From a virus, in the IMG/VR virus record IMGVR_UViG_3300044712_001016, positions 1-39,532 of that record: a stretch of 39,532 nt of DNA; one strand, given 5' to 3'. Positions 128 through 39,532 of this stretch are shown one piece after another (position 1 is the first letter of the stretch; each line of letters begins with the position of its first letter). Position numbers and translations under genes: made by a program. The notes under the pieces are model-generated. The model was not told where the DNA came from, ran no database searches, and saw only the letters and a program-made list of their open reading frames with translations.

Positions 128-153
128 AAAAAAATATAAATTCATACTGGTAA
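1..153 (+). CDS. 3' part of a basic hypothetical protein that spans the contig junction
   Basis: The window opens inside a reading frame whose first codon is position 1 and whose stop is TAA at 151-153. Joined to 39328-39532 through the 127-base overlap, it encodes a 76-residue protein very rich in Lys and Arg. Such charge suggests nucleic-acid binding, but A-rich DNA yields Lys codons by chance. I see no ribosome binding site at its start at 39328, so whether it is translated is uncertain. It lies between the structured RNA (39144-39325) and the early promoter (216-244). Confidence 0.35.
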   Translation, partial: RDELRRKTKERWDMIKKLNKNFRKRKHRSRNKKTKNRFEYRSKKNINSYW

Positions 154-215
154 CTCTTTTAAAGAAGATTTATAAAACTAAAATTTGAGAGGGTAAAAAA
201 AAGATTTAAAAATAG

Positions 216-244
216 TTGACAAAGAAAAAATAAAATGTTATAAA
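216..244 (+). promoter_or_regulatory. early promoter P1, sigma70-type
   Basis: A perfect TTGACA (216-221) is separated by 17 bases from TATAAA (239-244). Transcription should start near 251, which is the A of an ATG, so the mRNA would be leaderless. The spacer has the 11-mer TAAAATGTTAT (231-241), shared with promoter P2 at 10911. In both promoters the distance from the first base of the -35 box to the ATG is 35 bases. It is placed to drive the early operon, subject to the two terminator hairpins at 286-356. Confidence 0.85.
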
Positions 245-250
245 TTATCC

Positions 251-364
251 ATGCTTAAAAGATTACGCACAATCTTTAACACAAACCGCGAAGAAACACA
301 TCGCGGCATTTTTATGCTCATCCGATGGGTGCGTCCATCGGGTGGGCTATTTTTTTGGAGGTAA
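251..364 (+). CDS. leaderless leader-peptide frame (37 aa)
   Basis: ATG at 251 coincides with the expected transcription start of P1. The frame has 37 codons and ends with TAA at 362-364. No Shine-Dalgarno is possible, since nothing lies upstream in the transcript. The frame passes through both terminator hairpins (286-313 and 316-356), and its stop overlaps the GGAGGT ribosome binding site (357-362) of the next gene at 369. This fits a regulatory leader in which translating ribosomes melt the terminators and are coupled to the next gene. The peptide has no recognisable domain and could be non-coding. Confidence 0.4.
   Translation: MLKRLRTIFNTNREETHRGIFMLIRWVRPSGGLFFWR
286..313 (+). terminator. 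attenuator hairpin 1 in the early leader
   Basis: A six-base perfect stem, CCGCGA (286-291) with TCGCGG (301-306), encloses a nine-base loop and is followed by CA and five Ts (309-313). It sits about 35 nt downstream of the expected P1 start and forms a weak to moderate intrinsic terminator, the first of two in tandem. Confidence 0.6.
316..356 (+). terminator. attenuator hairpin 2 in the early leader
   Basis: A 13-base stem (316-328 with 335-347, two wobble pairs) with loop GTGCGT is followed by TA and seven Ts (350-356). This is a textbook Rho-independent terminator, yet it lies between the early promoter and the first well-supported early gene. Early expression must therefore be attenuated or need antitermination. 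The ribosome binding site of gene 369 follows directly. Confidence 0.85.
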
Positions 365-3983: not shown

Positions 3984-4172
3984 ATGAAATACTACAACAT
4001 CTGCACAAAACAAGAATGGGAAGAAAACGGAGTAAAGCGGCACAAATGGCTACCAATAGGAACACTCCGAGTCAAGGACGATGGTAGAATGAGCATGCAG
4101 CTCAACACCATGCCAAACGAGCAAATATTCGTATTTGCTCAGAAACCTAAAGAAGAGAGCCAGGAGGGATAA
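3984..4172 (+). CDS. small hypothetical protein, possible OB/beta-rich
   Basis: Sixty-two residues, starting two bases after the nuclease stop, with its last base overlapping the next ATG. It alternates short polar and aromatic stretches (KWLPIGTLRVKDDGRMSMQL, then EQIFVFAQK), which suggests a small beta-sheet protein. Similar short proteins occur near recombination genes of other phages without a known role. No signal or membrane segment is present. Confidence 0.6.
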   Translation: MKYYNICTKQEWEENGVKRHKWLPIGTLRVKDDGRMSMQLNTMPNEQIFVFAQKPKEESQEG

Positions 4173-5017
4173 TGTACCTCCTAAAGCGAATGAGCGGAAA
4201 CGCCATAAAGGTTTTCTACATCATTTGCCACAATTCAGATGGCAGGTTTTTTAACAACCTGGACACGATCATGGAATACAAAATAACAGCCCCGACCGTT
4301 TATAAATCAATTGGGGAACTTATGAAAAAAAACGTGATCCGAAAATACCAGGAAGCTGGAAAACCTGCCGTCCTTGAATTACAACCCCCATACGACCATT
4401 ATGCAGAACATTTAAAAGCCTTCCAAGGAAAACTTAAACCGGAAGGAACACCACAGGAAACAGACACAAGCGAACACCACAGAAACATCGTAGAAATCAT
4501 CTCATACTACGGGACCATGATAGGTATCGGAGACACACACAAAAATGAATGGTTCCAGCAAAACATCGGGACCCTTTACCCATTCGCAAAAAAACTTTAT
4601 AGATACACTTCAAACCTTGATAAATCAAAAAAAATTTTAGACAATGCTAACAGATACTACAAAGCCAAAGGAATAAGCTGGTCCATGCAAGGCGCACTCA
4701 TGAATAATATTCAAATATTTTTAAAACAGCTTGACGAACCTAAAGGATACCGAGCTGACACACCCGTCAAAAAACTTCTATGCGCCTACAAGATTTTAAA
4801 AGGCCTATCCCCAACAAACGTAGACTGGGACATCCGACACGCAGAACGTGCAAAACCCCACGCAGAACACATTCTAAACCGATTTGAAGGCGACTGGGAA
4901 CAAGCCTGCAACTATATCGAAAAAGAATCAAAAAAACTTACCGACGCAAAACTATCATTCACCATTCAAACCCTCGCTGATCGAGTGATGGAATGGAACC
5001 CAAAGGAAACGAAATGA
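4172..5017 (+). CDS. helix-turn-helix replication-type protein
   Basis: 281 residues. Residues about 5-65 look like a winged-helix domain: GNAIKVFYIICHN, then NLDTIMEYKITAPTVYKSIGELMKKNVI as helix-turn-helix. This resembles the N-terminal domains of phage replication initiators (O- or DnaD-like). The C-terminal two thirds are helical with many Lys and aromatic residues and no Walker motif, so it is not a helicase or loader ATPase. Its site after the recombination genes fits replication, and it is the only candidate initiator seen. A transcription-factor role remains possible. Confidence 0.55.
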   Translation: MYLLKRMSGNAIKVFYIICHNSDGRFFNNLDTIMEYKITAPTVYKSIGELMKKNVIRKYQEAGKPAVLELQPPYDHYAEHLKAFQGKLKPEGTPQETDTSEHHRNIVEIISYYGTMIGIGDTHKNEWFQQNIGTLYPFAKKLYRYTSNLDKSKKILDNANRYYKAKGISWSMQGALMNNIQIFLKQLDEPKGYRADTPVKKLLCAYKILKGLSPTNVDWDIRHAERAKPHAEHILNRFEGDWEQACNYIEKESKKLTDAKLSFTIQTLADRVMEWNPKETK

Positions 5018-10945: not shown

Positions 10946-11134
10946 ATGTTCAAAACTAAGACCTACACCATAGACAAGTCCAGAGAAAAAAAACTCCGAG
11001 AAATTAACAATTCTCTAGAGAGAACCACCGGACTCAAGATCGGAGAAAGCTACATCGTCCGAATCGCCATAGAAAGACTCATTGAAGACAAATCAGTCAA
11101 AAAAATCATTCTCGATCACAAATCAAAAATATGA
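10946..11134 (+). CDS. ribbon-helix-helix-like regulator, leaderless start
   Basis: Sixty-two residues. The pattern is a short basic strand (TKTYTIDKSREKKLREINN), a helix, a turn with GLKIGESYIV, and a second helix (RIAIERLIED). This matches small ribbon-helix-helix repressors in size and arrangement, but I cannot confirm the fold. ATG sits at the predicted start of transcription from P2 with no ribosome binding site. It overlaps the ParB-methyltransferase gene by four bases and may autoregulate both. Confidence 0.6.
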   Translation: MFKTKTYTIDKSREKKLREINNSLERTTGLKIGESYIVRIAIERLIEDKSVKKIILDHKSKI

Positions 11135-12372
11135 AAACAGAAAAACTATTCGCAAAATATTCCCCGACATTTAACCCACGCGCAGATTATACAGAATTAA
11201 AAGACTCCGAATACAACCCCAGAAAAAGCACCGAGAAACAATACCAAGACCTTAGACAATCAATCCGAAAATTCGGAACCATCTCCCCAATCATCGTCAA
11301 TTCAGCGCCAAACCGTAAGAACATCATCATCGGCGGCCACTTTAGAAGGAAGGTCTGCATTGACGAAGGGATAGTAACCGGACCCGTCATCTACGTAAAT
11401 ATCCCAGACATCAAAGAAGAGCAAGAGCTGTGCCTCAGATTAAACAAAAACGTTGGAGAATGGGACGTTGACCTTTTAGCAAACATAGACGACATAATCC
11501 TTGCCGACGTTGGATTCGACCTTAAGACCATAGACCAGATTTTCGCAAACATCCCATTTGAGGACGACTTCTCCGGACACGAAGAATACCAGAAGATCAA
11601 GAAACCGGAAACAAAGCCAGGAGACCTCATCGAATTAGGACATCACCGGCTCCTTTGCGGAGATTCCACAAAAGAAGAAGACCTCAAGAAATTAATGAAC
11701 GGAAAAAAAGCCGACATTTGCTTCACAGACCCGCCTTACAATGTGAACTATGTCGGAAGAGGAGAAAAAAACCCCACCGGAATCATGAACGACAACATGA
11801 CCGAAGACCAATTTATAGATTTCTCCGTAGGCTGGGCAAAACAGATGTCCGAGAATTTAAAGACCGGAGGCGTTTATTACATCTGCTCAGGATACAGCAG
11901 CTTTTCGACCTTCCTCTACGCCCTAAAGATGGCCGGAACCCACTTCTCACAGCCCATCATCTGGGTCAAAGACACCCACAGCATGGGATGGAACGATTTC
12001 CGATACAAGCACGAAACGATTTTAAAGGGAAAATTCAAACGGGACAAAAAAGCCCAATCCTTAATCTACGGATGGAACAAAGGAAAGCATTACTTTGACG
12101 GCGTAAAAGATGAAGCCGACGTTTGGACCATCAAGCGCCGATCAGGAAATACCATGGTTCACCCAACCCAGAAGCCAATCGAGATGATGAACCGAGCCCT
12201 AGTGCACAGCTCCAAGCGCGGAGACCTCGTCCTTGACCTATTTGGAGGCTCCGGAGGAACACTCATCAGCGCAGCAATCAACAACCGGATCTGCTACATG
12301 ATCGAACATGATCCCAAATATTGTGACGTTATCCGAAAAAGATATGAAGCCTACGAAAGAACAAAGAAATAG
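11131..12372 (+). CDS. ParB-like domain fused to beta-class DNA methyltransferase
   Basis: 413 residues. Residues about 29-78 carry a ParB/Srx-like motif set (YNPRKSTEKQYQDLRQSI, then IIIGGHFRRKVC). The C-terminal part is a methyltransferase with motif IV before motif I: D200-P-P-Y (TDPPYNVNY) and FGGSGG at 371-376. This order defines the beta class, which mostly makes N6-methyladenine and sometimes N4-methylcytosine. ParB-methyltransferase fusions are common in phages and probably guard phage DNA from restriction. It starts by ATGA overlap with the ribbon-helix-helix-like gene. Confidence 0.88.
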   Translation: MKTEKLFAKYSPTFNPRADYTELKDSEYNPRKSTEKQYQDLRQSIRKFGTISPIIVNSAPNRKNIIIGGHFRRKVCIDEGIVTGPVIYVNIPDIKEEQELCLRLNKNVGEWDVDLLANIDDIILADVGFDLKTIDQIFANIPFEDDFSGHEEYQKIKKPETKPGDLIELGHHRLLCGDSTKEEDLKKLMNGKKADICFTDPPYNVNYVGRGEKNPTGIMNDNMTEDQFIDFSVGWAKQMSENLKTGGVYYICSGYSSFSTFLYALKMAGTHFSQPIIWVKDTHSMGWNDFRYKHETILKGKFKRDKKAQSLIYGWNKGKHYFDGVKDEADVWTIKRRSGNTMVHPTQKPIEMMNRALVHSSKRGDLVLDLFGGSGGTLISAAINNRICYMIEHDPKYCDVIRKRYEAYERTKK

Positions 12373-12803: not shown

Positions 12804-13238
12804 ATGAAAACGAGCACTAAAAGCAGCGCCGAATACGAACTCAGAATCCACGAAGTCTACACGCTCCTACTGTCATGCGCAAGTAGACAGAAAATATGGC
12901 AATACGTTTCACAAAAGTGGATGATCAGCAAACGATCAATGGATAGGATGATCGCAGAAGCAACTCGGAGAATAGAATCAGAAACCCAAAAGGACGAAAC
13001 AAAACTCCGAGAGAAGCACATAAGAATGAAGACGGACCTTTATAACAGGGCTTACGCAGATAAGAACTGGGCACTGTGTAAAGAGATTGAGAAAGACATG
13101 GCTGAATTTTTCAATCTCTATCCTGAGAAAACCAACACCCTGAACCTAAACTCCAACAAGCCCATATCATTCGTGTCAATCAGTACCGTTCCGCAAAGAG
13201 GAGTTAAACTTGCCTCAAGCGGAAGCAAAAAGACCTGA
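12804..13238 (+). CDS. terS: terminase small subunit
   Basis: 144 residues. The N-terminal 60 residues contain a helix-turn-helix-like segment (ASRQKIWQYVSQKWMISKRSMDRMI) for recognition of packaging DNA, followed by a long charged helix for oligomerisation and a Ser/Lys-rich tail. Position directly before the large terminase supports the call. Its 3' end overlaps the TTG-started large subunit by 29 bases. The start has no ribosome binding site and lies next to P3. Confidence 0.75.
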   Translation: MKTSTKSSAEYELRIHEVYTLLLSCASRQKIWQYVSQKWMISKRSMDRMIAEATRRIESETQKDETKLREKHIRMKTDLYNRAYADKNWALCKEIEKDMAEFFNLYPEKTNTLNLNSNKPISFVSISTVPQRGVKLASSGSKKT

Positions 13239-14634
13239 AGAACTAATTATAAACCTTTACTGTCCTGGCTCTATACAATGCCAGGATTTTCCTGTTTGTG
13301 GACATGGCCCAAATTGGGCTCAGAAACCCATGTCAGACGCCGTTCTTTCAGGAAACTTTGATGATGTGCTTGGAATCGGAGGCTTTAGAAGCGGAAAAAC
13401 AAGCGAAGGCGTCCGGATCGGCACAGAAATCTCCGTAAGATACCCAGGAAACCGCATTTTAATCACCAGGAAGTACAGCGTAGACTACCAATCCACCATA
13501 GCCCCAGTCATTAGAGAGATCATCCCAGAAGCGATCATTGTCAAAGAACCAACAAGCAAGGACCCCTACTACACGATCAGAACCCAGGGAGACAAGACAT
13601 CAGACATCTGGTGCATGGGACTCTACGGAACAAACCGGAAAAGGATCGGAAAGATCAAAGGACAAAGCTTCGGCGTCATCATTGTGGACCAGGCAGAAGA
13701 ACTCGACCAAGCAGACATCGACCTATTGAAAGCCCGCCTCAGTTTAAAAGCCATGCCGTTCCAAGTTCTCCTTCTTTTAGCAAATCCACCGAACATAGGA
13801 CACTGCCTACACACCAGATTTGAAATAGAGAAAAATAAAGGACGCAGAGCCATGTTTAATCTGCCCACAGAAGCGAACAAAGACAACATTCCACCGGATT
13901 ATATTGAGAAATTGAAGGAAGACTACCATGACCGACCAGGATGGGTACAGGCATATTTGAATGGAACATGGGGATATACGGTCATAGGAGACGCAGCATT
14001 CAAGGGATTCAAAGAAGAAACCCACATTTTGACCATACCATACGACAAAAACGTGGAAATCATACGATCGTGGGACTTTGGATGGAAACACCCCGCAGTA
14101 TCCTGGTACCAAAAGAAAGCCGGAGGAGGCATACACAAGCTCAAAGAACACATGGGAGACAAGATTCTCATCACAGACTTCGGACGAGCGGTCGTGACCA
14201 TGACAAACGAATTCTTCCCAGGAGCACAATGTTTAGACTTTGGAGACCACGCCGGAAACCAGGTTAATGATAAAGACAAACCAAGCATAGACGTCTTAAA
14301 AAGAGACCACAATATCGAAGTAAAAACCAAACCTAATACATCAATTGACGCCACAATCGATCTTTTGCAGCGCCAAATCTCATCACTCAACAGCGATGGA
14401 CAGCCCAGATTCACTTGTGACCCATCATGTCGGATAACAATTGACGCATTACAAGGCGGTTATTCAAGAGATGAGATCGGAGAAGTCATAAAAGACGGTT
14501 TCTTTGAGCATGTTATTGATACCGACCGATACGTCGTCTACAATTTGTACGGAAACCAAATAAGTGGAGCTCGCCAATCAGCAAAGAACATCAAAATTCG
14601 ATCAGCAACCTACGGATTCGGGAGACCTAAATGA
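13210..14634 (+). CDS. terL: terminase large subunit
   Basis: 474 residues. I use the TTG start at 13210 because GAGGAG (13197-13202) lies at ideal spacing. Walker A is GIGGFRSGKTS (55-65, K63), Walker B VIIVDQAEEL (about 156-165). The C-terminal nuclease has SWDFGWKHP (D near 289) and CLDFGDH (D near 343). The enzyme cuts concatemers and pumps DNA into the procapsid through the portal. N-terminal Cys residues (CPGSIQC, CGHG) form an unusual possible zinc site before the ATPase. Confidence 0.93.
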   Translation: MPQAEAKRPEELIINLYCPGSIQCQDFPVCGHGPNWAQKPMSDAVLSGNFDDVLGIGGFRSGKTSEGVRIGTEISVRYPGNRILITRKYSVDYQSTIAPVIREIIPEAIIVKEPTSKDPYYTIRTQGDKTSDIWCMGLYGTNRKRIGKIKGQSFGVIIVDQAEELDQADIDLLKARLSLKAMPFQVLLLLANPPNIGHCLHTRFEIEKNKGRRAMFNLPTEANKDNIPPDYIEKLKEDYHDRPGWVQAYLNGTWGYTVIGDAAFKGFKEETHILTIPYDKNVEIIRSWDFGWKHPAVSWYQKKAGGGIHKLKEHMGDKILITDFGRAVVTMTNEFFPGAQCLDFGDHAGNQVNDKDKPSIDVLKRDHNIEVKTKPNTSIDATIDLLQRQISSLNSDGQPRFTCDPSCRITIDALQGGYSRDEIGEVIKDGFFEHVIDTDRYVVYNLYGNQISGARQSAKNIKIRSATYGFGRPK

Positions 14635-37069: not shown

Positions 37070-37654
37070 ATGGTTATTAAAAATTTATTTTTATCTATTC
37101 TTAACAGATTCTCTCCAAAGACATCCCCAGAACCTAAAAAAGAAATCCCACTGTACAATTTTAATCTTGTCAACGAATTAAAAATGCTATCCGAAAAAGA
37201 ATTCATAGAAATCGTTAAACCAATCGCTTTAAAAATTGCAGAAGATATGAAAATCAATGCCTGGGTCGCCATGTCTCAGGCAGCACACGAAAGCCGGAAC
37301 GGTAACTCTCAGCTCGCTCGCGTCGCTTTGAACCTATTCGGGATCAAAGCGACCGAAAGCTGGGCATCATCCGGAGGCGCCATGATGTCATTTAACACCG
37401 GAGAACACATCAAAGGAAAAGATTTAATGGTCCAGGACGCATTCCGAGTTTATGATTCCTGGGCGCATAGCTTCCTAGACTGGGCAAAACTTATGCAGAA
37501 ACCGATCTATAAAAAAGCTTTTGAGTATATGCAGAAAGAAGAAGACGGAATCTTTGCAATTAAGGAGATCGCAAGGGCAGGATATGCCACCGATCCACAC
37601 TATGCTGAGAAAGTGATAGAGACGTACCTAAAACTAACAGGAGGAAATGTATGA
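37070..37654 (+). CDS. peptidoglycan hydrolase, glucosaminidase/FlgJ-like
   Basis: 194 residues with AAAAGGAGTAAA before the ATG. The lysozyme-like core reads AWVAMSQAAHESRNGNSQLA with the probable catalytic E74, then LNLFGIKA, and a DAFRVYDSWAHSFLDWAKLM helix, characteristic of the glucosaminidase family. Residues 1-14 are weakly hydrophobic and might act as a signal-arrest anchor. It would cut glycan strands at lysis and lies first in the lysis block, joined by ATGA overlap to the Pal-like gene. Confidence 0.82.
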   Translation: MVIKNLFLSILNRFSPKTSPEPKKEIPLYNFNLVNELKMLSEKEFIEIVKPIALKIAEDMKINAWVAMSQAAHESRNGNSQLARVALNLFGIKATESWASSGGAMMSFNTGEHIKGKDLMVQDAFRVYDSWAHSFLDWAKLMQKPIYKKAFEYMQKEEDGIFAIKEIARAGYATDPHYAEKVIETYLKLTGGNV

Positions 37655-38250
37655 AGAAAAAAATAGTAGTAATGTCGTTATGCCTGCTTTTTGTTGGATG
37701 TGTTAACACCAAAAAAAACAAAAAACAAATCAACGAACTTAAATCAACCATTGCCCAACAACAGGACATCATTAATGGACAGAAGGAAATCATCAAAAAC
37801 TTAGAAGATAACCCAATCGTTATCGAAAAGGAAAAAGAGGTCATTAAAACCATCAACTCGGTCGAATACGTTCAACCTGTGCGATCCCAGCAAGTGATTC
37901 ACGATGACAAACTAGAATTTGAGAACATTCCGTTTGAATTTGACAAATACTCGGTATCCCCAAAGGCCATCCCAATCATTAATGAGTCAATAAATACCCT
38001 TAAAGACAACATGATGACTACCGTATTGATAGAAGGACGAGCGGATGAAAGAGGAACCGAGGAGTACAACTATGCTCTTGGATTAGCCCGCGCAGAACAA
38101 GTAAAGCAAGTTTTGGTCAAGAATGGTATTAGAGCCGGAAGACTTAAAACGATCTCATTGGGATTTAGCGAACCCATCTGCAGAGGAAAATCTGATCAAT
38201 GTTATGATAAGAACCGCGTAGTCTGTATACGCGAAATCTCATTTAAATGA
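37651..38250 (+). CDS. OmpA/Pal-like peptidoglycan-binding lipoprotein
   Basis: 199 residues. A lipoprotein signal with lipobox LFVGC (C17) is followed by a coiled-coil linker (QINELKSTIAQQQDIINGQ) and an OmpA-C domain: IPFEFDKYSV, then IEGRADERGTEEYNYALGLARAEQV with the Asp and Arg that bind diaminopimelate. Cys in the last 30 residues are extra. Such a protein ties outer membrane to wall in diderm hosts. In a lysis operon it could act as a spanin-like or Pal-competing factor. The call is firm, the role inferred. Confidence 0.82.
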   Translation: MKKKIVVMSLCLLFVGCVNTKKNKKQINELKSTIAQQQDIINGQKEIIKNLEDNPIVIEKEKEVIKTINSVEYVQPVRSQQVIHDDKLEFENIPFEFDKYSVSPKAIPIINESINTLKDNMMTTVLIEGRADERGTEEYNYALGLARAEQVKQVLVKNGIRAGRLKTISLGFSEPICRGKSDQCYDKNRVVCIREISFK

Positions 38251-38432
38251 CAATCTGGGACCTCCTGCCGAAAAAGATATTAATAAAAATTCGCTGGAGG
38301 TTCTCAGCAACCGGATATGTCAATAAAAGCAAAAGCCATAGAGTGGATCATTCGCGGAATTTACTCGAACAACAAAATCCACCACTCCATAGCCATGACA
38401 GCAGTAAAGATCAAAGCAAAACAAATCAGTAA
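38247..38432 (+). CDS. possible 61-residue frame overlapping the holin 5' region
   Basis: ATG 38247 overlaps the Pal-like stop and the TAA at 38430-38432 abuts the AAGGAGG of the inner holin start at 38446, an arrangement typical of real genes here. However, its second half (from about residue 28) is rich in His, Asn, Gln and Ser and reads like a shifted frame of the alternative gene from 38317. Only one of the two upstream frames may be used, or the two may be linked by frameshifting. Confidence 0.25.
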   Translation: MTIWDLLPKKILIKIRWRFSATGYVNKSKSHRVDHSRNLLEQQNPPLHSHDSSKDQSKTNQ

Positions 38433-38628
38433 GGAGGTTTTTCCAATGGATTCAAAAAGCAAATGGAAGTCAAAAGCAGTATGGGCAGCGATTATAGCAG
38501 CCATTCTTGGAGCAATCCAGCCAGTTTCTGCAGCTTTAGGACACCCGATCGTAGTTCCGACATGGGTATATGAAGTTTTAGCCGCTTTTGGGCTTTACGC
38601 CATCAGGGACGCCCAGGGACTTAAATGA
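38317..38628 (+). CDS. holin candidate with two possible starts
   Basis: 103 residues from 38317, or 60 residues from ATG 38446, which has AAGGAGG at 38431-38437 and is likely the main start. The shorter form has two hydrophobic stretches (AVWAAIIAAILGAIQPVSA and WVYEVLAAFGLYAI) with a short linker and charged N terminus, like small class II holins. The extra N-terminal 43 residues (KAKAIEWIIRGIYSNNKIHH) show the codon style of this phage, so a long form may also exist. It precedes the endopeptidase gene by four-base overlap. Confidence 0.65.
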   Translation: MSIKAKAIEWIIRGIYSNNKIHHSIAMTAVKIKAKQISKEVFPMDSKSKWKSKAVWAAIIAAILGAIQPVSAALGHPIVVPTWVYEVLAAFGLYAIRDAQGLK

Positions 38629-39110
38629 CCTACCAGGAACTGATCCGACAACTCCGGCCAGGAGACGTCTTAGTTTACAACACCAGGAGCTTCTTCGGAT
38701 GGCTCATCAGCTTTAAAACCTGGCACAGTATCACCCACGTTGAAGTTTATGCCGGAGATGAACTCGCAATAGCCGCCAGGACAGCCGGAGTAAACGTCTA
38801 CAAGATAGAAACACAAAACCTTGTAGGCGTTTATAGACCAAACCAACCATTCAATTTTGAAGCAGGAATGGAATGGTTCAATAAAGAAGCGCGTTACCAA
38901 AAATACGACTGGAAAGGAATCCTGGGATTTATTAGAGTAGTCCCAGGAGGAGACAGGACCAAACAATTCTGCTCAGAACTCATGACCCGATTCTGCCGAA
39001 AAGAAGGACTAGACCCATTCCCCCGCGAAGACGCGGACAAGATAGCCCCTTTCCAAATCACCATAAGCCCCTACTTCGATAAAGTCTTAGACTTCACAAA
39101 AAAAACTTGA
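38625..39110 (+). CDS. YiiX-like permuted NlpC/P60 cysteine peptidase
   Basis: 161 residues, overlapping the holin stop as ATGA. Key residues are H38 in WHSITHVEVYAG and C116 in TKQFCSELM, in the His-before-Cys order that marks permuted NlpC/P60 domains, with an early RPGDVLVY motif. The enzyme likely cuts a peptide or amide bond of the wall or of lipid-linked substrates at lysis. Virion-associated variants exist. A weak promoter (39107) overlaps its stop. Confidence 0.78.
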   Translation: MTYQELIRQLRPGDVLVYNTRSFFGWLISFKTWHSITHVEVYAGDELAIAARTAGVNVYKIETQNLVGVYRPNQPFNFEAGMEWFNKEARYQKYDWKGILGFIRVVPGGDRTKQFCSELMTRFCRKEGLDPFPREDADKIAPFQITISPYFDKVLDFTKKT

Positions 39111-39136
39111 CATCCTAAAAACTAATTTAGTAAACT
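39107..39136 (+). promoter_or_regulatory. promoter of the structured RNA
   Basis: TTGACA (39107-39112) and TAAACT (39131-39136, four of six matches) at 18-base spacing, with transcription expected near 39143, one base before the closing stem of the RNA. ACTAA-T-TTAGT (39121-39131) is a perfect 11-base palindrome between the boxes and may be an operator. It is unlike the operator in P2. Confidence 0.55.
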
Positions 39137-39143
39137 CCACACC

Positions 39144-39325
39144 ACAAGGGACAAGGCGCTGGCGAGCGCAAAATTCCGAAAGGATGATAGAGTAACTACC
39201 CGAGGGTGAAACGTACCTTAGAAGAGGGAAACCCCTTATGAAATACGCTCATAGCGATTTTAACGAATGTAGCAGTTAAATCGAGAAAAACAGCAAACTG
39301 GGCAGAGTCCCTTGTTTCTTCTTTT
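39144..39325 (+). ncRNA. compact multi-helix non-coding RNA, about 180 nt
   Basis: A nine-base closing stem (39144-39152 with 39307-39315) encloses several local helices. These are GCGCT/AGCGC (39156-39169), a GAAA-capped stem (39175-39184), a five-pair stem around 39203-39219, GAGGG/CCCTT with AAAC loop (39224-39237), and CGATTT(T)AAC with GTTAAATCG (39255-39283). A U-rich tail (39315-39325) follows the closing stem. Its own promoter starts exactly at the stem and no ORF covers it. I do not recognise it as tRNA, tmRNA, 6S, RNase P or a known riboswitch. A trans-acting or packaging RNA is possible. Confidence 0.6.
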
Positions 39326-39327
39326 AT

Positions 39328-39532
39328 ATGAACCAATTAACAGCAAGCATAGACCGAGAATTCAGACAGCGAATGGAGCTACACAAAGAAAGCTTCAAAG
39401 CGCATAGAGATGAACTGCGGAGAAAAACAAAAGAAAGATGGGACATGATAAAAAAATTAAATAAAAATTTCAGAAAAAGAAAACACAGAAGTAGAAACAA
39501 AAAAACTAAAAACAGATTTGAGTATAGAAGTA
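39328..39532 (+). CDS. 5' part of the basic hypothetical protein spanning the junction
   Basis: ATG 39328 lies directly after the structured RNA and has no ribosome binding site. The frame reaches the end of the window in codon 69 and continues at 128-153, giving 76 residues in total, mostly Lys, Arg and Glu. It could also start at ATG 39373. Strong charge bias in A-rich DNA makes the coding call weak. Confidence 0.35.
   Translation, partial: MNQLTASIDREFRQRMELHKESFKAHRDELRRKTKERWDMIKKLNKNFRKRKHRSRNKKTKNRFEYRS
39406..39532. repeat. terminal direct repeat, right copy
   Basis: Identical to 1-127. One copy should be removed before any gene count; the sequence is then a 39405-bp circle. Confidence 0.95.

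What the first reader, a model, noticed from the sequence alone, without database searches (positions are those of the whole stretch)
39107..39325. Free-standing structured RNA with its own promoter between lysis and early genes
The sequence shows a promoter whose start falls at the 5' edge of a nine-base closing stem, five or more internal helices, and a U-rich end. No reading frame covers it, and I cannot match it to a known RNA class. Its place after the lysis genes and ahead of the early operon would suit a regulatory RNA, a host-targeting RNA or a packaging RNA.
Basis: partly seen in the sequence, partly recalled or inferred. Interest (0 to 1): 0.75.

Follow-up and report, generated by a model that had tools for sequence, protein, structure and literature searches.

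The report
Orphan structured noncoding RNA in phage
A 185-base non-protein-coding gap in an unusual virus of bacteria probably makes a folded small RNA, but no relative of it could be found anywhere, so its shape and job remain a prediction from one sequence.

Summary
The sequence description is largely right. A 217-nt gap (39111-39327) with no reading frame follows the lysis genes of an orphan, circular 39.4-kb podovirus-like phage. A TTGACA-18-TAAACT promoter-like site (39107-39136) puts the predicted start at about 39143. There a perfect 9-bp stem begins (39144-39152 / 39307-39315), enclosing four well-predicted hairpins and followed by a T-rich stretch. The fold is more stable than shuffles (z -2.7, 1/200). 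A 9-bp end-to-end stem arises in 4 of 5000 shuffles. No Rfam family matches at any useful threshold. However, about 2% of windows in this genome score as well or better for stability, the promoter score is not unusual genome-wide, and the T-rich end is not a canonical terminator. The key test, covariation, could not be run: no homologue was found in phage or plasmid records, by motif scans of viral and bacterial collections, or by a covariance model over 84 viral records plus two named phages. Best reading: an orphan phage small RNA with a closed multi-hairpin fold; a structured leader or late-transcript 3' end is the main rival. A stronger leader/terminator element lies nearby at 252-358.

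The parts
39107..39136 (+). sigma70-type promoter-like site TTGACA-18-TAAACT, overlapping the end of the upstream gene
   Evidence: 10 of 12 consensus matches; not unusual genome-wide; predicted start about 39143 by inference
39143..39327 (+). candidate structured noncoding RNA (about 185 nt)
   Evidence: MFE -49.3 kcal/mol, z -2.75, 1/200 shuffles; no ORF; no Rfam match
39144..39152 (+). closing stem, 5' strand ACAAGGGAC
   Evidence: perfect complement of 39307-39315; p 0.87-0.99; 4/5000 shuffles
39307..39315 (+). closing stem, 3' strand GTCCCTTGT
39156..39169 (+). hairpin GCGCU-GGCG-AGCGC
   Evidence: pair probability 0.96-0.98
39175..39184 (+). hairpin UCC-GAAA-GGA (GNRA tetraloop)
   Evidence: pair probability 0.84-0.98
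39203..39219 (+). hairpin AGGGUG-AAACG-UACCUU
   Evidence: pair probability 0.56-0.73
39224..39237 (+). hairpin GAGGG-AAAC-CCCUU
   Evidence: pair probability 0.75-0.89
39239..39262 (+). hairpin UGAAAU.CGCU-CAU-AGCG.AUUUUA, competes with the next
   Evidence: pair probability 0.42-0.57
   Evidence: pair probability about 0.4; best fold containing it is 1.3 kcal/mol weaker (-48.0 vs -49.3)
39315..39327 (+). T-rich end TTTCTTCTTTTAT, not a canonical terminator
   Evidence: terminator scan finds nothing here

Best explanation
A phage-encoded, non-translated small RNA of about 175-185 nt. Host RNA polymerase starts at about 39143 from the 39107-39136 promoter. The two ends pair in a 9-bp stem that closes the molecule and shields its ends. 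Inside sit four stable hairpins, one rearrangeable helix and purine-rich single-stranded joints (GAUGAUAGAGUAACUACC; GAGAAAAACAGCAAACUGGGCAGAG). The 3' end is made by weak termination or processing at the U-rich run after the closing stem. The compact closed fold without tandem repeats suggests that it acts as a structured scaffold or decoy for a host or phage RNA-binding protein or enzyme during infection, more than as a simple antisense RNA. Shown: sequence features and predicted fold. Inferred: transcription, ends, independence, and all of the function.
For: Stem begins within a base or two of the predicted start and ends just before the U-run. z -2.7. Stem joining the ends in 4/5000 shuffles. 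No coding frame or ribosome site. The closing stem keeps p about 0.8 inside a 620-nt longer transcript. No long antisense match to the phage's own genome: the best is 13 nt, in the U-rich tail.
Against: One sequence only: no homologue and no covariation. Eight of about 328 windows on the + strand fold better against shuffles. Promoter score is matched by chance sites. No canonical terminator at the 3' end.
Confidence: 0.5

Rival explanations
1. A structured 5' leader (cis-acting) of a longer transcript. RNA polymerase from 39107 reads through the U-run and the A-rich stretch to the strong terminator at 316-347, about 0.6 kb on round the circle. The fold then controls RNA stability, read-through or the 76-aa basic frame that starts at 39328.
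For: No terminator-like site on this strand before the one at 316-347. An alternative pairing of 39307-39325 with 39426-39444 could open the closing stem. An open 76-codon frame follows directly.
Against: The 39328 frame has no Shine-Dalgarno, no family match below E 0.1, and its Lys/Arg content follows from 53% A. The 3' strand of the stem ends just before a U-run.
Confidence: 0.22
2. 3' end of the late (lysis) transcript: a stabilising or terminating structure, without a promoter of its own.
For: Follows the last late gene by 33 nt with no other terminator between. A 9-bp stem followed by a U-run would suit a transcript end.
Against: A 154-nt interior is far too long for an intrinsic terminator hairpin. 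A promoter-like site lies in register with the stem.
Confidence: 0.15
3. Chance: an intergenic stretch that happens to fold, with a DNA-level role (genome-end, replication or packaging site) or none.
For: About 2% of windows fold as well or better. No conservation detected. An A-rich tract (53% A) adjoins.
Against: Several features in register: promoter, 9-bp end-to-end stem, GNRA hairpin.
Confidence: 0.13

Closest known systems
phi29-type packaging RNA (pRNA)
   Same: Phage RNA of about 174 nt with paired ends, near the early end of the genome (own knowledge)
   Different: No Rfam match. This phage packages with a TerL-type terminase, not a phi29 gp16-type motor.
Phage-derived regulatory sRNAs (review PMC12197685, abstract read)
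   Same: Short noncoding RNA encoded in a phage genome
   Different: Those reviewed have reported roles; here neither transcript nor target is known and the fold is a closed multi-hairpin.
6S RNA
   Same: About 180 nt with paired ends (own knowledge)
   Different: No Rfam match; branched hairpins in place of one long rod with a central bubble.
GOLLD / ROOL ornate RNAs (PMC12286853, abstract only)
   Same: Structured RNAs of unknown role, some found in phages (own knowledge)
   Different: Much larger (own knowledge); no Rfam match.
RNA anti-CRISPRs, Racr (PMC10651486, abstract only)
   Same: Small noncoding RNA encoded in a viral genome
   Different: Racrs mimic CRISPR repeats as solitary units; this is a 185-nt branched fold. 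Host and its CRISPR repeats unknown, so not testable.

Membership tests
Any of 4227 Rfam 15 families | covariance-model score at or above gathering threshold | tested here: not met
   0 matches in the window; best at E up to 10 are chance matches far below threshold
phi29-type pRNA | match to the pRNA sequence-structure profile | tested here: not met
   that phi29 pRNA is in Rfam is own knowledge
phi29-type pRNA | partner gp16-type packaging ATPase | tested here: inconclusive
   terminase is TerL-type (phrog_3717, phrog_979), which argues against it; no explicit gp16 search was made
Retron ncRNA | reverse transcriptase in the same element | tested here: not met
   PF00078 absent from the phage
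Type III toxin-antitoxin RNA | tandem repeats of a pseudoknot unit before a toxin gene | tested here: not met
   no direct repeats within the RNA
tRNA / tmRNA | ARAGORN-detectable fold | tested here: not met
   0 genes
Conserved structured RNA | compensatory base changes among homologues | tested here: inconclusive
   no homologue found with model R1 or DNA searches, so no alignment could be made
Phage sRNA | discrete transcript in infected cells | not testable with these tools
   needs RNA-seq or Northern blot

The most novel reading that the evidence does not exclude
A previously undescribed class of phage structured RNA with a compact closed multi-helix fold that binds and redirects a host enzyme, such as RNA polymerase, an RNase or a defence effector.
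Probability: 0.12. Interest if true: 0.7.

Novelty: new member of a known kind. Interest (0 to 1): 0.35.

Why it matters
If transcribed, it would be an orphan phage noncoding RNA of a fold absent from Rfam, placed where host-takeover regulators often sit. It would be a concrete, testable case of phage RNA that sequence-based annotation misses. As it stands, it is a single-sequence prediction from a phage with no close relatives in the searched collections.

Tried and rejected
Homologue searches, all negative: megablast of 38000-39532 and blastn of 39107-39330 against phages and blastn against plasmids. DNA motif scans of viral contigs with three segments and of bacterial genomes with one. Hits were checked by blastn and nhmmer and those listed were scanned with covariance model R1; all look like chance. 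The one recurrent cluster (181-216 of the query, in L293, L320 and others) appears to be coding sequence: it runs into an ATG frame behind a ribosome-site-like GGGAG. Neighbour proteins as bait: 161-aa lysis-end protein, TerL, portal and structural protein found no close relative in viral contigs. A TerL alignment reached 80 distant loci at 24-34% identity. R1 over those 80 records, two named phages and four motif-hit records gave two weak matches that span only 62-64 nt for a 185-position model, so most of it is skipped. R1 was built from one sequence (two identical rows), so it is weak for distant relatives. The host could not be inferred: RecT hits lean to Komagataeibacter, Megaira and actinobacterial phages, methyltransferase and endolysin largely to Gram-positive phages. 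Rejected readings: retron, type III antitoxin, tRNA/tmRNA, phi29 pRNA (see membership test). A T-box- or group II-like look of GAGGGUGAAACGUACC was considered; Rfam gives no such match.

Full report
Context. The window is one IMG/VR record whose last 127 bases repeat its first 127, so it behaves as a circular genome of 39,405 bp and 39532 continues at 128. The recognisable genes all lie on the + strand: RecT and exonucleases (575-2329), methyltransferases, TerL (13210-14634), head-tail adaptor/portal (14768), major head protein (18715), structural proteins with podovirus-like matches, then an endolysin (37070-37654), an OmpA-domain protein (37651-38250), a holin-like protein (38446-38628, weak match) and a 161-aa protein (38625-39110). 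The phage is an orphan: best TerL relatives share about 30% identity, and portal and lysis-end proteins have no tblastn match among 50,697 phage records.

The observation. Between the stop at 39110 and the ATG at 39328 no reading frame of 20 aa or more lies on the + strand, apart from a TTG frame that starts at 39312. TTGACA-18-TAAACT at 39107-39136 scores 10/12 and predicts a start at about 39143. At 39144 begins ACAAGGGAC, the perfect complement of 39307-39315, with pair probability 0.87-0.99. Four hairpins are well predicted (39156-39169, 39175-39184, 39203-39219, 39224-39237). The 3' flank is U-rich but is not recognised as an intrinsic terminator; the next such site on this strand is at 316-347, about 0.6 kb on round the circle.

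Is it more than chance? The fold is 2.7 standard deviations more stable than dinucleotide shuffles, 1 in 200. A perfect stem of 9 bp between the first 24 and last 40 bases arises in 4 of 5000 shuffles; these bounds were chosen after seeing the stem, so the true significance is lower. Against this, in a + strand scan at 120-nt steps eight other windows, mostly coding, scored better, and 10/12 promoter-like sites occur about equally on the + strand (5) and on the - strand (4). The case rests on the coincidence of features in register, not on any one of them.

Homologues. Rfam 15 has no match. Absence of homologues reflects the isolation of the phage as much as the RNA itself, and the collections may leave out near-identical records.

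Function. The best-supported reading is a stand-alone small RNA with a closed, branched fold (about 0.5). Transcription, ends and any partner are inferred. A scaffold or decoy role for a protein is preferred to antisense because the molecule is closed and branched and shows no long complement in the phage genome (best 13 nt, in the U-rich tail); host targets could not be tested since the host is unknown. A leader of a longer transcript (0.22) and a late-transcript 3' end (0.15) remain open. The 76-aa basic frame at 39328 is probably not a gene: no ribosome site, no family match below E 0.1, and a 53% A composition that yields Lys/Arg codons by itself.

What it is not. A packaging RNA of the phi29 type is unlikely: no pRNA profile match, and the packaging motor is TerL-type. 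Not a retron (no RT), not a type III antitoxin (no repeats), not tRNA/tmRNA.

In passing, a better-supported RNA element lies at 252-358, behind a site reading TTGACA-17-TATAAA that starts at 217: three hairpins, z -5.35, 0 of 200 shuffles, ending in a 14-bp intrinsic terminator with a run of T. It stands just ahead of the first early gene and could be an attenuator or a second small RNA.

Noticed in passing
217-358 (+): TTGACA-17-TATAAA promoter-like site followed by three hairpins (z -5.35, 0/200 shuffles) ending in a 14-bp intrinsic terminator, just before the first early gene (ATG 369): likely an attenuator leader or a second small RNA, statistically stronger than the finding itself.
   Followed up: partly
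39328-39532 and 128-250 (+): A-rich stretch (53% A, 11% C) with an open 76-codon Lys/Arg-rich frame but no ribosome site; probably noncoding.
   Followed up: partly
39406-39532 and 1-127: 127-bp exact terminal repeat of the record: the contig behaves as circular, genome 39,405 bp.
   Followed up: yes
37651-38250 (+): OmpA-domain protein (PF00691, E 4e-16) inside the lysis cassette, next to the endolysin.
   Followed up: no
11131-12372 (+): Fusion of a ParB N-terminal domain with an N6/N4 DNA methylase (PF02195 + PF01555), relatives in phages of many hosts.
   Followed up: no
4103-4402 and 38783-39082 (+): Coding windows with unusually stable predicted RNA folds (z about -4.3 to -5.6, 20 shuffles each).
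   Followed up: no
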